Assembly: GCA_902766765.1 (NCBI GenBank)
Contig: CACXER010000022.1
Span: 1 to 34,014 of the forward strand
DNA from: an uncultured Elusimicrobium sp.
GTDB lineage: Bacteria > Elusimicrobiota > Elusimicrobia > Elusimicrobiales > Elusimicrobiaceae
Direction: 5' to 3'
Length of the DNA: 34,014 nt
The notes beneath the pieces are model-generated. The model made no database searches, was not told the origin of the DNA, and saw only the letters and a list, made by a program, of their open reading frames with translations. Positions 11,394-32,261 of this stretch are shown in pieces. The number at the start of each line of letters is the position of its first letter. Positions within the stretch are counted from its first letter, which is position 1. Position numbers and translations under genes: made by a program.

Positions 11394-11924
11394 ATGAATA
11401 AACAAGGTTTTACATTGATGGAATTACTTATCACGGTGCTGATTTTGGGCATTTTGACATCCGTGGCGGTGCCGCAATATACGCGCAGTTTGGAGCGCTC
11501 TCGTGCAACGGAAGCCATGACCGGGCTCAAGGCATTAAATGATGCCGTCTATGCGTACGCAGCCGAGCGGGACTCTTCCGAAATGTGCCCGAAGTCTTTT
11601 CGCAAATTGTTGATTAGTTTGCCGGGCGAGATTAGCGAGGATGGTTCTACTATTACTACGAAAGATTTTGTGTACACATTGGGCGGGGCTACGGGTGCCC
11701 TGGTGCCGGGGACGGATTGCCCGGGAGTGCTGGCTACCCGACGCGGGGGGAGTAAATATGACTATATTATTTGGAACCCTTACGTGGTAGGTACTGCCGG
11801 GAAGGGCACGTCTCTGGCGTGCACGAGTCCGGGGGGAGTGGCTACCAGTTTGGCGATATGTGAGTCGCTTAACCTGTATACGGTCAATACCTCTCCGTAT
11901 GCGTCACCGGAGAACCCGGAATAG
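11394..11924 (+). CDS. Type IV pilin-like protein 1
   Basis: A 176-residue protein with a class III prepilin leader: MNKQG, then FTLMELLITVLILGILTSVA, with Glu at mature position 5 and a hydrophobic N-terminal helix. It continues with VPQYTRSLERSRATEAM, the usual amphipathic part of the helix. The globular C-terminal domain has several Cys (EMCPKS, TDCPGV, LACTS, AICES) and is not one I recognise. Such proteins are processed by a prepilin peptidase and act as major or minor pilins or pseudopilins. A strong AAGGAGC precedes the ATG. The function of this particular copy is unknown. Confidence 0.92.
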   Translation: MNKQGFTLMELLITVLILGILTSVAVPQYTRSLERSRATEAMTGLKALNDAVYAYAAERDSSEMCPKSFRKLLISLPGEISEDGSTITTKDFVYTLGGATGALVPGTDCPGVLATRRGGSKYDYIIWNPYVVGTAGKGTSLACTSPGGVATSLAICESLNLYTVNTSPYASPENPE

Positions 11925-12008: not shown

Positions 12009-13454
12009 ATGAAAAAAATTCTCATAGGGTTGTTTTTGTTTTCGTCGTTACCTACCTGGGCGGCTACTCAAAATAAAGTTAGCATGGTTACTTTCTTCCC
12101 AGTGCCTTATGTGGCCTACAGTAATGTGTCTGTAGCCAAAGAAATGGATATTGGTTTAACGGGACAGAATTGTTCGTTGACGTTAGGAAGTACAGGATTA
12201 AGTTCTCGTCCGCTTGAGGTTGCCAATACCAACGTAACAAACGGTGCGTTATTTTTAGGTGGTAATGGGGCCGTTTCTACCACGGGGCAAGTTGTGTTAG
12301 GTTCCGCTTCTTCCGCATGGGACGGGGTGGCTCACTTAGATTTTGCCAGAAACTTAGGTGTCGGTACGGTAAACGGAGCGACCAGTTTAAATACGTCCGA
12401 ATTACATGTTTCTACTTTAAATCTTTTTGGTCGGACGTTCCCCACTTGTAACGTAAACGGGGATCATACCATTTCTTGGGCGGAATTAGCCCTGGGGCCT
12501 AATAAAGACAAAAAGGAAGTTTACCTGGTTTGTGGCCCTATTCCGACCGATTGTCCTGCCAGTACTAAACCGAGCGAGACGTGTACGTGCTCCAACCCGG
12601 CGGCAACCGGGTCGAAAGTGGTAACATGTAATGCTTCTACGGGTACTTGGACAGAAGGACAGTGTACCTGTGCTTGCCCGTTGGAGCAAAAGCCGGATGA
12701 TCCGTCCAACGGTGCTTACTACGTAGAAGGACAACAATGCTCGTGCGCCGGTGCCGGATCCAAGGGAACGAAGCATATTATCAGTAGTGCAACGTGTAAT
12801 TTGAATACGGGCTATTGGTCGGTTTCTACCCAGTGCACCAACTGCAAATGCCGCAAAGTATCAGACAATTACCAATTTAGTTATGTGGCGAGCGGTACCA
12901 CGGACACGGAAAACTGCGAAATATCCGGTTACACTCGAAGCAGTAACGACCCTATAGCGCTTTTTGCAAATAGTTCCAAATGTACAGGTGCCAATGGCGG
13001 AACTCGTACGCGCACTTGCCAAACGGACGGTTCTTGGTCAAGTTGGGGCTCTTGTTCTAACACGAGACAGTGCTGTTCCAACTCCACGAAACCTTCGCCG
13101 ACTGCCACGAATGGAATTTGGAATTGTTACGGTTGTTATAAAGAGCCGACCCAAGCTGCAGACCCTAATCCCAAGGATAAGCCAGATCCGCGTTATGGGT
13201 ACAATCCGCAAGGCACTCAGTTCTCGTTCTATTATGCATCCAATGGCCCTGGTAATGGATATTGTACGAGAGCGAAAAACGCGTCCTCTGCTGCTTCTCA
13301 TTGGGGGAGTGGCGAGTGTGATGCTGTGAAGAAAGTAGGGCCTGCTGTGTTCTGCTACCATGGTAATTGGGTCGATGCGGGTGGCGCGTGCGCCATATTG
13401 TATCCGAGCCTTGGAATTTCGGAAGGGTACATATTTACGGAAGTAAATTGTTAG
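12009..13454 (+). CDS. Large Cys-rich secreted protein with repeated C-x-G-x-W-x-C modules
   Basis: Family not recognised. The ATG at 12009 is preferred over TTG at 12003 because AAGGAG lies 8 bases before it; the product is 481 residues. A signal peptide (MKKILIGLFLFSSLPTWA) is followed by a hydrophobic FFPVPYVAY motif (29-37). Next comes a Gly/Ser/Thr/Asn-rich, beta-like region (40-140), then a loop resembling an EF-hand or dockerin calcium site (NVNGDHTISWAE, 148-159). From residue 180 on it is Cys-rich. At least four short modules share the pattern Cys, Gly, Trp, Cys: near 207-219, 263-276, 337-349 and 449-461. The third (GTRTRTC...WSSWGSC) superficially resembles a thrombospondin type 1 repeat. 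The last residue is Cys. It follows a pilin-like gene but has its own promoter and terminator. It is probably a disulfide-bonded surface or adhesion protein. Confidence 0.75.
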   Translation: MKKILIGLFLFSSLPTWAATQNKVSMVTFFPVPYVAYSNVSVAKEMDIGLTGQNCSLTLGSTGLSSRPLEVANTNVTNGALFLGGNGAVSTTGQVVLGSASSAWDGVAHLDFARNLGVGTVNGATSLNTSELHVSTLNLFGRTFPTCNVNGDHTISWAELALGPNKDKKEVYLVCGPIPTDCPASTKPSETCTCSNPAATGSKVVTCNASTGTWTEGQCTCACPLEQKPDDPSNGAYYVEGQQCSCAGAGSKGTKHIISSATCNLNTGYWSVSTQCTNCKCRKVSDNYQFSYVASGTTDTENCEISGYTRSSNDPIALFANSSKCTGANGGTRTRTCQTDGSWSSWGSCSNTRQCCSNSTKPSPTATNGIWNCYGCYKEPTQAADPNPKDKPDPRYGYNPQGTQFSFYYASNGPGNGYCTRAKNASSAASHWGSGECDAVKKVGPAVFCYHGNWVDAGGACAILYPSLGISEGYIFTEVNC

Positions 13455-13470: not shown

Positions 13471-13502
13471 AAAAGGCCGGGGAGTGTATCCCCGGCCTTT
13501 TT
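13471..13502 (+). terminator. Terminator after the Cys-rich protein gene
   Basis: A perfect 13-bp GC-rich stem (13471-13483 with 13489-13501) with a 5-base loop runs into Ts. Confidence 0.92.
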
Positions 13503-13549
13503 ACGTGATAGGTTTCATCCCGTCCGGAAATGACTTTGCTGAAAGTATG

Positions 13550-16750: not shown

Positions 16751-17215
16751 ATGAAACAAGGTTTTACGTTAGTAGAAATGTTGGTCGTTGTCGTAATCGT
16801 TACCATTTTAGCGGTAGTTGCTATTCCGCAGTATCAAGCGTCCGTAGAGCGTTCCCGCACGGCGGAGGCCTTGTACAATGGGCGGGTTTTGTTGGATAGT
16901 ATGAATCGGGCGTTATCGCTTAGCCCCAACGATGTGCCCAAAACTAAACAATCGTTGGACGTTAAAATTGGCGGTGGACAATGGCGGGATGACAGTTCTT
17001 TTTATACCAAAGATTTTCGGTATGATATTTCGAACGGCTCTTATTTGCAAATTGAACGTATTGCCGGTGGAAATATCCTATATGTGCTATATATGTACAA
17101 TCGGTATGTCCCGGCGGATGACGGCCTGAGAGTATGCGTATGGCATTCCGATCTGGGCAAAACCGTGTGCGATATACTCTCCAACCAAGGGTTTATCGGA
17201 AAGTCCGGCGAATAA
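16751..17215 (+). CDS. Type IV pilin-like protein 2
   Basis: A 154-residue protein beginning MKQG, FTLVEMLVVVVIVTILAVVA, IPQYQASVERSRTAEAL: a short class III prepilin leader with Glu5 and a long hydrophobic helix. The C-terminal domain has two Cys (LRVCVWH and KTVCDIL) that could form the usual pilin disulfide loop. GGGAGG lies 6 bases before the ATG. It is a single-gene unit between the divergent kdsA operon and a terminator shared with the convergent dut. Specific function unknown. Confidence 0.92.
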   Translation: MKQGFTLVEMLVVVVIVTILAVVAIPQYQASVERSRTAEALYNGRVLLDSMNRALSLSPNDVPKTKQSLDVKIGGGQWRDDSSFYTKDFRYDISNGSYLQIERIAGGNILYVLYMYNRYVPADDGLRVCVWHSDLGKTVCDILSNQGFIGKSGE

Positions 17216-20865: not shown

Positions 20866-21405
20866 ATGAAAAATGAAATGTGGTGCAAATTAGGCGGGTT
20901 TACACTGATAGAATTATTAGTAGTCGTCCTTATTATCGGTATATTGGCGGCGGTGGCTCTGCCGCAGTATGAAAAAGCGGTGTGGAAGTCACGCTATTCA
21001 CAATTAGTGACGGTGGCTAGTTCTCTTGCTCAAGCCGCGGAAGTATATTACTTGGCTAACGGACAAAATCCGACGGACATGGAAGAATTATCTGTGGAGA
21101 TGAATTGTGAGAGATCTCTGGGCGGGCGTTGGAAATGTGGCGACTTTTATTGTGATCTAAGGGCCAATAAAACTATAACCTGTATGAACGAGGAGTTTTT
21201 GAAAAACGGGTATGGAATAAGTATAAATTTTGATAGCTCTGTTGCAGGACAACGGTATTGTATAGCTATGGCCGGGGAAGGAAATGATAAATATAATCAA
21301 TTTTGTAAAACTCAAACACACCAAGCCAGTCATGCGTTTGCGTATGGTATTTTAGATGGAAGCGGAACCTTGTCATACAAATCTACTAATTGGTATGCTT
21401 ATTGA
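20866..21405 (+). CDS. Type IV pilin-like protein 3
   Basis: A 179-residue prepilin-like protein. The leader is MKNEMWCKLGG followed by FTLIELLVVVLIIGILAAVALPQYEKAVWKSR, with Glu5. It is the closest of the five in this window to the classic PilE/PulG consensus. The C-terminal domain has several Cys (MNCERS, KCGDFYCDL, TCMNEE, RYCIAM, FCKTQ), enough for more than one disulfide. AGAGGG precedes the ATG. Single-gene unit with its own promoter and terminator. Role within a pilus or secretion system unknown. Confidence 0.93.
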   Translation: MKNEMWCKLGGFTLIELLVVVLIIGILAAVALPQYEKAVWKSRYSQLVTVASSLAQAAEVYYLANGQNPTDMEELSVEMNCERSLGGRWKCGDFYCDLRANKTITCMNEEFLKNGYGISINFDSSVAGQRYCIAMAGEGNDKYNQFCKTQTHQASHAFAYGILDGSGTLSYKSTNWYAY

Positions 21406-31143: not shown

Positions 31144-31617
31144 TTATCCTCTCATCAGGAATTCCGCATCGCTGATGGCGGTGTCACCCATGTTTTCACA
31201 CAACCAACTGTATTTGGCCCGATTGACAACTTCACAGGTGAGGGTATCTTTGCCGTAGGTGTCGTGGTTGTAATAAAAATTAAAACAATAGTCTTTATTG
31301 GGCAAACGGCAGGCAGATACCCTAGAGTTTGAAAAAATATAAACAAATTTATCCAACGTAAATGACTGAGTCGTGTCGGAAGAAGCATCAAAAATAGAGA
31401 TGTCTAATCCTTGCAATTTCATGGGAGGGACAGAATTGGCCGCTTTATAGCGTTTGGCTGAATCAAAAATAGAGCGTAACGTGACAAGCGCCGTTGTGGC
31501 GTCGGCCCGAGCAATGGAACGATTGTATTGAGGCAAAGCAATGGACGTTAAAATACCGATAATTAGTACAACGGCTAACAGTTCCGTTAGCGTAAAACCC
31601 GATTTGTTTGTTTTCAT
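31144..31617 (-). CDS. Type IV pilin-like protein 4
   Basis: A 157-residue prepilin-like protein: leader MKTNKSG, then FTLTELLAVVLIIGILTSIALPQYNRSIARADATTAL, with Glu5. The C-terminal half has Cys in ACRLPNKDYCFNF, LTCEVV and WLCENMG, suggesting disulfide-stabilised loops. AGGAG lies about 8 bases before the ATG on the minus strand. Its promoter faces that of the divergent pilin 5. Function unknown beyond class. Confidence 0.93.
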   Translation of the reverse strand: MKTNKSGFTLTELLAVVLIIGILTSIALPQYNRSIARADATTALVTLRSIFDSAKRYKAANSVPPMKLQGLDISIFDASSDTTQSFTLDKFVYIFSNSRVSACRLPNKDYCFNFYYNHDTYGKDTLTCEVVNRAKYSWLCENMGDTAISDAEFLMRG

Positions 31618-31666: not shown

Positions 31667-31684
31667 ATGATTTGTGATTTATTC

Positions 31685-31712
31685 TTGCAAAACCGTTAAA
31701 AAAGGATATAAT
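31685..31712 (+). promoter_or_regulatory. Promoter of pilin 5
   Basis: TTGCAA (31685-31690), a 16-base spacer and a perfect TATAAT (31707-31712) give a leader of about 27 bases. It is back to back with the pilin 4 promoter; 18 bases separate the two -35 hexamers. Confidence 0.75.
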
Positions 31713-31745
31713 AAAAATAGACATTTTTGGAGAAAAGGGGTTTTT

Positions 31746-32261
31746 ATGCAAACATCTAAACGCATTTTTAACGCAGGTTTTACGCTGACAGAACTTATGG
31801 CGGTGGTTATTATCATATCCATTTTAGCCGTATTAGGAACGGGTTCTTACCGCAAGGCGGTGGAACGCAGTCGCTTGTCTGACGGGCTGATAGCAGCTTC
31901 TACCGTGATGGAGGCCGTCAACCGCTATCATGCAGACAAATATCCGGCCGCCGCTGCGGGATATCCGAAATATAATCAGTTGGATATCTCTTTTCCGAAC
32001 GAAACCGCGTGTACGACCGCTTCCGATTATTGTAAAAAAACAAAATATTTTGAGATCACTATCGGTAATAACGGCTTTGTAGATGCCCAACGTATGAAAG
32101 GTGCTAGCGCGGGAGATTACACGGTTCGCGTATATTCCGATACATTTAGTGCTACCAAGGGCCACGCTACGGAGTGCCGTGGTGCCAATGACGGCGGAAG
32201 AGATTTATGCGTTTCGGCCGGATACGGTACGTGCGATTCCGAAAGAGTGTGCGTTAAATAG
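31746..32261 (+). CDS. Type IV pilin-like protein 5
   Basis: A 171-residue prepilin-like protein. The ATG at 31746 is chosen because the open frame upstream covers the promoter; a purine-rich GGAGAAAAGGGG precedes it. The leader MQTSKRIFNAG is followed by FTLTELMAVVIIISILAVLGTGSYRKAVERSR, with Glu5. The usual PQY after the helix is replaced by GTGSY. Cys pairs in the C-terminal half (TACTTASDYCKK, TECRGA, DLCVSAGYGTCDSERVCVK) include a Cys-dense C-terminus unlike the other four. Divergent from pilin 4, followed by a terminator and then nadB. Confidence 0.92.
   Translation: MQTSKRIFNAGFTLTELMAVVIIISILAVLGTGSYRKAVERSRLSDGLIAASTVMEAVNRYHADKYPAAAAGYPKYNQLDISFPNETACTTASDYCKKTKYFEITIGNNGFVDAQRMKGASAGDYTVRVYSDTFSATKGHATECRGANDGGRDLCVSAGYGTCDSERVCVK

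What the first reader, a model, noticed from the sequence alone, without database searches (positions are those of the whole stretch)
12009..13454. Cys-rich secreted protein with repeated C/G/W/C modules and a calcium-loop-like site
Seen: a signal peptide, an FFPVPYVAY motif, a Gly/Ser/Thr-rich region, NVNGDHTISWAE resembling an EF-hand/dockerin loop, and at least four copies of a short Cys-Gly-Trp-Cys pattern (near residues 207, 263, 337 and 449). One copy looks like a thrombospondin type 1 core. The last residue is Cys. I cannot name a family. Inference: a disulfide-bonded, modular surface or adhesion protein, possibly used with the neighbouring pilin-like proteins.
Basis: partly seen in the sequence, partly recalled or inferred. 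Interest (0 to 1): 0.6.

Follow-up and report, generated by a model that had tools for sequence, protein, structure and literature searches.

The report
Swappable cysteine-rich heads on pilus-linked carriers
Gut Elusimicrobiota carry a secreted protein family with a constant front half and an ever-changing, cysteine-rich back half, and back halves of the same kind are also attached to pilus subunits, which suggests an interchangeable set of surface binding heads.

Summary
The ORF, signal peptide, FFPVPYVAY motif and four C-x-G-x-W-x-C repeats are real (repeats: 4 against 0.18 expected). The calcium loop is letter-deep only (1 of 37 relatives); Pfam lists no TSP1. The protein is a carrier plus a head. 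The carrier (residues 20-176) defines an unnamed family in 62 of 66 genomes of its genus (Ca. Avelusimicrobium, Elusimicrobiota). Heads are hypervariable and Cys-rich, with an even Cys count in 57 of 61, as expected of disulfide-bonded domains. Within some genomes the carrier-coding block is 90-100% identical while heads are near random. Main new result: head modules of the same kind sit on a second, unrelated carrier, a type IV pilin domain (domain in 63 of 66 genomes; 60 tailed copies read). Of 61 heads, 41 match a pilin tail; decoys give 0. A same-strand pilin lies just upstream of 14 of 81 family genes against 10 of 511 others. Best reading: a non-pilin carrier that displays interchangeable disulfide-rich heads with a type IV pilus-like system, as PilY1 or TcpF do beside modular pilins. 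The pilus link is inferred; the ligand is unknown.

The parts
12009..12065 (+). signal peptide (residues 1-19, cleavage site approximate)
   Evidence: sequence read by eye; similar N-termini in the aligned relatives
12066..12536 (+). carrier domain (residues 20-176): conserved family domain without a Pfam, NCBIfam or PHROG name
   Evidence: no family match, none shared by members
12093..12119 (+). FFPVPYVAY motif (residues 29-37), about ten residues after the signal peptide
   Evidence: F30, P31, Y34, Y37 invariant in 37 of 37 rows; related TYYPxP motif in other Elusimicrobiota
12447..12536 (+). conserved C147...W157...C175-G176 segment that closes the carrier
   Evidence: C147, W157, C175 invariant; part of the better predicted stretch of the models
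12537..13451 (+). variable Cys-rich head (residues 177-481, 26 Cys)
   Evidence: phmmer with residues 181-481 finds only itself among the ORFs read by then; composition and parity; Cys count
12552..12671 (+). C-G-W-C module 1
   Evidence: pattern; module profile A4 E 2.7e-10, a profile that contains this copy
12732..12845 (+). C-G-W-C module 2
   Evidence: pattern; module profile A4 independent E 1.2e-6, a profile that contains this copy
12966..13061 (+). C-G-W-C module 3 (the one that resembles a TSP1 core)
   Evidence: pattern; module profile A4 E 9.4e-9, a profile that contains this copy
13353..13391 (+). fourth C-G-W-C pattern, degenerate
   Evidence: pattern match at residue 449; not found by the module profile
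13471..13503 (+). GC-rich hairpin followed by a T run, probable terminator
   Evidence: sequence read by eye
11394..11924 (+). prepilin-type protein directly upstream, same strand, 84 bases before the ATG
   Evidence: Pfam N_methyl 4.9e-7; a pilin in the same place at six related sites (W, L040, L043, L062, L069, L178)

Best explanation
The protein is a two-part display protein. Sec exports it; the constant, beta-rich carrier (residues 20-176), led by the invariant aromatic-proline motif FFPVPYVAY close to the mature N-terminus, docks it on the cell's type IV pilus-like system or the outer membrane; the variable head, a string of small disulfide-bonded modules ending in a near-unique C-terminal domain, is the ligand-binding part. 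It is the non-pilin counterpart of the tailed (modular) pilins of the same cells, which carry heads of the same kind. Head diversity arises by recombination: carrier blocks are copied or homogenised, heads are exchanged, lost or replaced. Shown: carrier family, head variability, even Cys, homogenised block in several genomes, modules shared by two carriers, enrichment behind pilin genes. Inferred: docking on the pilus, role of the motif, ligand binding, and which recombination process acts.
For: Carrier family in 62 of 66 genus genomes, 35 of 36 of the good ones, and 68 of 247 phylum genomes. Heads: BLAST links 200 of 1830 head pairs, with lax settings, against 2054 of 2145 carrier pairs. Head Cys 7.9% against 2.4% in the carrier, even in 57 of 61 heads; other ORFs with 4 or more Cys 192 of 323. 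Intragenome copies: carrier DNA 90-98% identical in five copies of G128, 100% in a G034 pair, 97-98% in the G046 trio, with heads 41-60%; in G128 identity falls from 98% to 18% over about 80 bases at the junction. At shared sites of different genomes heads are mostly unrelated: 8 of 72 pairs with two heads have a BLAST match, and in 14 further pairs one head is missing or short (a recount). The C-G-W-C module profile, built from 13 copies in family members, matches 46 of 66 genomes and, where opened, also prepilin-type proteins. That pilin domain is in 63 of 66 genomes. 41 of 61 heads match one of 60 pilin tails at E <= 1e-4, 0 with reversed and 0 with three Cys-fixed shuffled decoy sets; one pair is 77% identical over 111 residues, 78% over 317 bases of DNA. 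The window's own head matches five pilin tails, best 2.6e-6. G128 pilin tails and family heads share modules. Upstream same-strand pilin: 14 of 81 against 10 of 511, Fisher 1.8e-7. In a distant class (G220) a prepilin gene (N_methyl) and two further short ORFs that look prepilin-like by eye run into two motif genes. T2SSE-family (PilB/PilT/GspE-type) ATPase in 90 of 90 family genomes. Precedents: many PilC/PilY1 modules are shared with modular pilins (PMC8179133, passages); TcpF and CofJ dock on a minor pilin by an N-terminal segment with a critical aromatic residue (PMC9565799, abstract and passages).
Against: 67 of 81 family members have no same-strand pilin directly upstream, and 6 of the 14 that do are one ancestral site. 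No structure: models are poor (mean pLDDT 46.2 and 67.5) and no fold match was found. DsbA is over the cut-off in 1 of 66 genus genomes (9 of 66 at E <= 0.001) and VKOR in 0 of 66, so the disulfide catalyst is unidentified; DsbB was not searched. Not all paralogue pairs are homogenised (59% in G001, 61% in G057, 62-77% for other G034 pairs), and in G052 identity declines gradually. Terminal 110-residue heads fall into 101 groups of 132 proteins and only 5 groups mix the two carriers, so sharing is mainly of modules. Within one genome only six head-pilin tail matches were seen, all in G034 and G049. The window's mature protein has an odd Cys count, 29. The pilus type is unknown: E. minutum is reported to have a Tad-like region (PMC8809381, passage). 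Shared modules could also reflect unrelated surface proteins drawing on one domain pool.
Confidence: 0.55

Rival explanations
1. An outer-membrane or secreted surface protein with its own anchor, independent of pili; the Cys-rich modules are a general-purpose surface domain pool of these bacteria, and pilins merely use it too.
For: 67 of 81 family genes have no same-strand pilin directly upstream; motif proteins of family f2 lie beside His-Xaa-Ser radical SAM genes rather than pilins.
Against: Enrichment behind pilin genes; no anchor (lipobox, barrel, sorting signal) seen by eye; of the module-bearing ORFs printed, those with a complete start are this family or prepilins, though L197, L207, L208 and L210 are incomplete and only 20 loci were opened.
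Confidence: 0.3
2. A hypervariable antigen or phage-receptor decoy whose heads vary to escape host immunity or phages rather than to bind ligands.
For: Head diversity at sites with conserved flanks (8 of 72 pairs with a head match; flank median 85% identity); homogenised constant block; frameshifted and head-less copies.
Against: 43 of 66 genus genomes show a single match, so switching within a cell has little material. Silent cassettes, invertases and phase-variation tracts were not searched for.
Confidence: 0.2
3. A polymorphic-toxin-like secreted protein: constant export domain with variable toxic tails.
For: Constant front and variable back is the polymorphic-toxin layout (recalled).
Against: Tails are disulfide-rich and repetitive; no Pfam family is shared by members; no immunity-like neighbour stood out by eye in the part of the gene lists that one search showed (its output was cut); modules of the same kind sit on pilins.
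Confidence: 0.05
4. A calcium-binding, TSP1-like adhesin, the literal first reading.
For: Loop letters and a WSSWGSC stretch in the window.
Against: Loop pattern in 1 of 37 rows; no Pfam match up to E = 1; element order reversed.
Confidence: 0.03

Closest known systems
Modular type IV pilins (PilB/PilC of Streptococcus sanguinis and others; PMC8179133, passages seen)
   Same: Export/assembly module with a grafted functional module that varies; the sibling tailed pilins are of this kind and carry heads of the same kind as the window protein
   Different: The window protein has a Sec-type signal peptide and no N_methyl match; its heads are Cys-rich modules without a Pfam name
PilC/PilY1 tip adhesins
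   Same: Non-pilin carrier whose variable modules are shared with modular pilins (PMC8179133, passage seen)
   Different: PilY1 has a C-terminal beta-propeller carrier and variable N-terminus; here the carrier is N-terminal and small, and PF05567 does not match the protein
TcpF / CofJ, proteins secreted through type IVb pili (PMC9565799, abstract and passages seen)
   Same: Signal peptide, then close to the mature N-terminus a segment with conserved aromatic residues; docking on a minor pilin is proposed here by analogy
   Different: Sequence relation not tested; no binding data; the motif here is far more conserved and is followed by a variable Cys-rich head
Thrombospondin type 1 repeat
   Same: Cys, Trp and Gly spacing in one copy
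   Different: Order of the R-R-C and W-W-C elements reversed (recalled); no Pfam match

Membership tests
Thrombospondin type 1 repeat | match to a curated TSP1 profile | tested here: not met
   hmmscan Pfam up to E = 1: no family for the window protein; TSP1 not among the four families that any of 36 members matched at E <= 0.1
EF-hand / dockerin | calcium ligands at loop positions 1, 3, 5 and 12, conserved in the family | tested here: not met
   1 of 37 rows, the window alone
Type IV pilin | class III (prepilin) signal and N_methyl motif | tested here: not met
   no N_methyl match in the window protein, while the upstream gene matches
Modular pilin (sibling family on the second carrier) | prepilin signal plus pilin module plus an extra module | tested here: met
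   L243:2541-4316 of the own genome and L145:973-2751 match N_methyl and run on for some 430-450 residues; 60 others read have tails of 228-563 aa, but were chosen for long open frames
PilC/PilY1 | PF05567 beta-propeller | tested here: not met
   no match in the window protein up to E = 1; genome-wide 0 of 90, but the control rang nowhere, so absence from the genomes is not shown
Type IVb pilus secretion substrate (TcpF/CofJ type) | segment with a critical aromatic residue near the mature N-terminus | tested here: inconclusive
   invariant F30, Y34, Y37, some 11-18 residues from the cleavage site judged by eye; binding untested
Type IVb pilus secretion substrate (TcpF/CofJ type) | binds a cognate minor pilin | not testable with these tools
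   needs a binding experiment
Type IVb pilus secretion substrate (TcpF/CofJ type) | encoded with its pilus genes | tested here: inconclusive
   same-strand pilin directly upstream in 14 of 81; prepilin-like ORFs in front of two motif genes in G220
Polymorphic toxin | recognisable toxin domain with immunity gene | tested here: inconclusive
   no Pfam family shared by members; neighbours only looked at by eye in a cut list; no assay

The most novel reading that the evidence does not exclude
Elusimicrobiota run a constant-carrier, variable-head display system with two unrelated, interchangeable carriers, a pilin domain and the FFPVPY domain, fed by one recombining repertoire of disulfide-rich heads; the invariant aromatic-proline motif (TYFPVPYxAY, in other classes TYYPxPYGxY) is a new, phylum-wide pilus docking and export signal.
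Probability: 0.33. Interest if true: 0.82.

Novelty: new variant of a known kind. Interest (0 to 1): 0.64.

Why it matters
Modular pilins and PilY1 show that modules are grafted onto pilus carriers over long evolution. Here the same seems to happen fast, inside one gut genus, with a carrier that is homogenised in several genomes and near-unique heads, and modules cross between a pilin and a non-pilin carrier. That would give a natural library of small disulfide-rich binding domains, a way to learn what uncultured gut Elusimicrobiota hold on to, and a testable candidate for a pilus export signal. It also points to a family that the Pfam, NCBIfam and PHROGs copies searched do not name.

Tried and rejected
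Rejected: TSP1 and EF-hand; assignment to a Pfam, NCBIfam or PHROG family (single weak hits at E 0.02-0.1 in single members taken as chance); relation to solved structures by sequence (five hits to gamma carbonic anhydrases, best E 0.19, taken as chance). Fold comparison led nowhere: the two models are weak (mean pLDDT 46.2 and 67.5), Foldseek found 0 matches with E <= 0.001 in PDB and in viral models, VIA-align best Z 2.3 among 35 chains. A single-protein scan of genome contigs found no relative; the alignment scan found 53 loci.

Considered: chance adjacency to pilins. The first count looked like chance; a count by strand and order with other genes as control did not. The pilin test there is a regular expression, the control genes are greedy ORFs of the same loci, and the 81 include two split genes counted in pieces. 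Considered: that Cys-rich composition alone makes heads match pilin tails. Without composition adjustment decoys do match (13 of 61 reversed, 7, 12 and 11 shuffled, against 49 real), so only the adjusted search (41 against 0) is used. Considered: PilY1 absence; the control was silent, so nothing is concluded. Literature: from the listings (titles and starts of abstracts; several lists capped) of searches of the held open library I saw nothing on this family or on tailed pilins of Elusimicrobiota; passages of PMC8809381, PMC6668835 and PMC11257099 do not mention them either; the E. minutum genome paper is not held, so prior mention there is not excluded.

Full report
1. What is there. The ORF at 12009-13454 encodes 481 residues: a signal peptide (by eye), a domain of about 157 residues and a Cys-rich tail. 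No Pfam or NCBIfam family matches; among 36 aligned members no Pfam or PHROG family is matched by more than one, and none below E 0.02. The four C-x-G-x-W-x-C copies are real (4 against 0.18 expected; 5 of 5000 shuffles). The calcium-loop reading fails: 1 of 37 rows has the ligand pattern.

2. The family. A search with the whole protein matched 51 of 101 genomes (own plus 100 relatives), all 51 in the same genus, and in the relatives through the front of the protein (alignments end by residue 280). With a profile of the front part (A1, 37 rows) 62 of 66 genomes of the genus match at E <= 1e-5, 35 of 36 among those at least 90% complete; 43 of 66 have a single match. Named contigs include Candidatus Avelusimicrobium excrementipullorum, two of whose contig lengths (9013 and 32236) equal those of G001, so the genus is Avelusimicrobium or its equivalent, Elusimicrobiota; several titles name gut samples. 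In the phylum 68 of 247 genomes match at E <= 0.001; outside the window's family (f1) only five, weakly, but the proteins read there begin with a hydrophobic segment followed by TYYPAPYGxY, TYYPSPYGxY, TYYPAPSGxY or close variants. G128, a single contig of 1,643,562 bases, is by size E. minutum (recalled, not confirmed by a call).

3. Constant carrier, variable head. Of 66 genus members with a complete carrier end, heads run from 0 to 482 residues, median 163; 4 have fewer than 15 residues (some heads may be cut by contig ends). BLAST links 2054 of 2145 carrier pairs but 200 of 1830 head pairs, the latter with lax settings. Heads have 7.9% Cys against 2.4% in carriers, and an even number in 57 of 61 heads of 60 residues or more; in other ORFs of the same loci with 4 or more Cys it is 192 of 323. 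Heads are related in part, so the 61 are not independent; taking one per single-linkage BLAST group it is 15 of 15. Of the four odd ones, L032 is frameshifted; L060, L181 and L176 are unexplained. Over the mature protein the count is even in 54 of 61; the window itself is odd, 26 in the head and three in the carrier.

4. Within genomes. Aligned copies show, in several genomes, a homogenised block that is the carrier: G128, ten pairs of five copies, carrier DNA 90-98%, 200 bases upstream 45-58%, heads 46-52%; G046, three pairs 97-98% against heads 41-60%; G049, three pairs 93-94% against 43-50%; one G034 pair 100% with upstream 99% and heads 52%; G244, fifteen pairs 80-92% against 41-52%. In G128 the block begins near the end of the signal peptide and ends at the carrier-head junction (98%, then 48%, then 18% in successive 40-column steps); in G052 the decline is gradual. 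Other pairs are not homogenised: G001 59%, G057 61%, the other G034 pairs 62-77%, G156 69-85%. Thirteen matches listed start within 20 bases of a contig start, as expected where assemblies break at near-identical copies. Duplication with head replacement and gene conversion of the carrier cannot be told apart with these data.

5. Between genomes. For 86 pairs of members in different genomes that share at least two flanking genes, median identity is 85% for the shared flank proteins, 46.5% for the carrier (25-79%) and 25% for the head (17-64%); in 72 pairs both have a head, and 8 of these have a head BLAST match; in 14 pairs one head is missing or short (recount). The window's site, or its upstream side, recurs in L040, L043, L062, L069 and L178; L062 there has no head and no remnant downstream.

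6. The second carrier. A profile of the C-G-W-C module (A4, 13 copies from family members, three of them from the window) matches 46 of 66 genus genomes, some by construction. Of the proteins opened (20 loci), those read with a complete start are this family (window, L193, L194, L199, L204) or have a prepilin N-terminus, a conserved pilin domain and a long Cys-rich tail (L195, L198, L202, L203, L205, L209, L211, L212); L196 and L206 are cut at the locus edge but lie in frames that hold the pilin domain; L200 and L201 begin inside what looks like the pilin domain, and L197, L207, L208 and L210 are incomplete. A profile of that pilin domain (A6, eight rows) matches 63 of 66 genomes at E <= 1e-20; this counts domains, not tails, and some listed matches have short frames. 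It includes one in the window's own genome (G000:C86, read as L243:2541-4319). I fetched 60 matches from 37 genomes, chosen mainly for long open frames; all 60 have tails, 228-563 residues, 9.2% Cys, Cys count even in 44 of 60 tails and in 51 of 60 for domain plus tail. Six tailed pilins of G128 have even counts in 6 of 6. In each of the 17 genomes with two or more such pilins the pilin domain is better conserved among copies than the tail (for example G128, 15 pairs: domain 83-100%, tail 50-81%; G055: 90% against 44%; least clear in G022, 55% against 44%; medians).

7. Shared heads. With composition-adjusted BLASTP at E <= 1e-4, 41 of 61 family heads match at least one of the 60 pilin tails; reversed tails give 0, and three sets with non-Cys residues shuffled and Cys fixed give 0, 0, 0; without adjustment the figures are 49, 13 and 7, 12, 11. 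The best pair, a G156 head and a G047 pilin tail, is 77% identical over 111 residues and 78% over 317 bases. Six matches are within one genome, in G034 and G049. The window head matches five pilin tails (2.6e-6 to 7.9e-5). Comparing only the last 110 residues, 132 proteins (66 of each carrier) fall into 101 groups, 5 of them with both carriers, decoys 0: terminal heads are mostly unique, modules are shared. In G128 a module of a family head recurs in six tailed pilins, one of which lies directly upstream of a family gene; its end resembles the head ends of G049 and G034 family members (9.4e-8, 2.9e-7).

8. Context. A pilin is the upstream same-strand neighbour of 14 of 81 family genes and of 10 of 511 other genes (Fisher p 1.8e-7); six of the 14 are one site, so there are at most nine independent sites. 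In G220, a distant class, a short ORF with a weak GspF match (E 0.0011), a gene matching N_methyl and two further short ORFs that look prepilin-like by eye run into two motif genes. T2SSE-family ATPases are in 90 of 90 family genomes; which filament system is meant is open, and E. minutum is reported to have a Tad-like region (PMC8809381, passage). Disulfide catalysts: DsbA over the cut-off in 1 of 66 (9 of 66 at E <= 0.001), VKOR 0 of 66; DsbB not searched.

9. Mechanism. Modular pilins carry grafted binding modules, and many modules of the non-pilin tip adhesin PilC/PilY1 are shared with them (PMC8179133, passages). TcpF and CofJ are exported proteins held on a minor pilin by an N-terminal segment in which one aromatic residue is critical (PMC9565799, abstract and passages). 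The window family has the layout such a carrier would need: signal peptide, invariant aromatic motif a few residues on, a constant carrier, and heads of the kind that the cell's modular pilins use. I therefore propose a non-pilin carrier that presents interchangeable disulfide-rich heads with a type IV pilus-like system. Carrier, heads, sharing and context are shown; docking, export route and ligand are inferred.

10. Novelty. Closest known kinds are modular pilins, PilY1 and TcpF/CofJ. The window protein fails the tested defining features of the first two, and for the third they are open (membership table); it works, I think, like PilY1 beside modular pilins. From the listings of searches I saw no paper that describes it, but the E. 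minutum genome paper was not available. PMC6668835 mentions Tad systems in Elusimicrobia (one passage); PMC11257099 has no whole word 'pilin' or 'pili'.

Noticed in passing
L325:3782-8467, L328:2596-6008, L327:1501-2728: In family f2 of the same order the TYYPAPY motif genes lie next to His-Xaa-Ser system genes: HxsB over its cut-off in L325 and L328, HxsD over it in L328, just under in L325 and weaker in L327, HxsC under it in L325. Motif proteins could be substrates or partners of that radical SAM system.
   Followed up: partly
L146:2721-3966 (G128): Two short tandem motif proteins with few Cys and no long head.
   Followed up: no
L196:844-3126 (G042) and G024:C107:19366-20652: Very long ORFs with many tandem C-G-W-C modules: at least ten in L196, nine listed in G024:C107.
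   Followed up: no
L042, L062, L068, L171:5347-5985: Head-less members with no head remnant downstream; L032 is frameshifted within the head; L034 and L054 are split over two ORFs.
   Followed up: partly
genus-wide: Very Cys-rich secreted proteins with mostly even Cys counts in genomes where DsbA is over its cut-off in 1 of 66 and VKOR found in 0 of 66; the oxidant is unknown.
   Followed up: partly
window 16751-17215, 20866-21405, 31144-31617, 31674-32261: Four further short prepilin-type genes scattered singly in the window (N_methyl).
   Followed up: no
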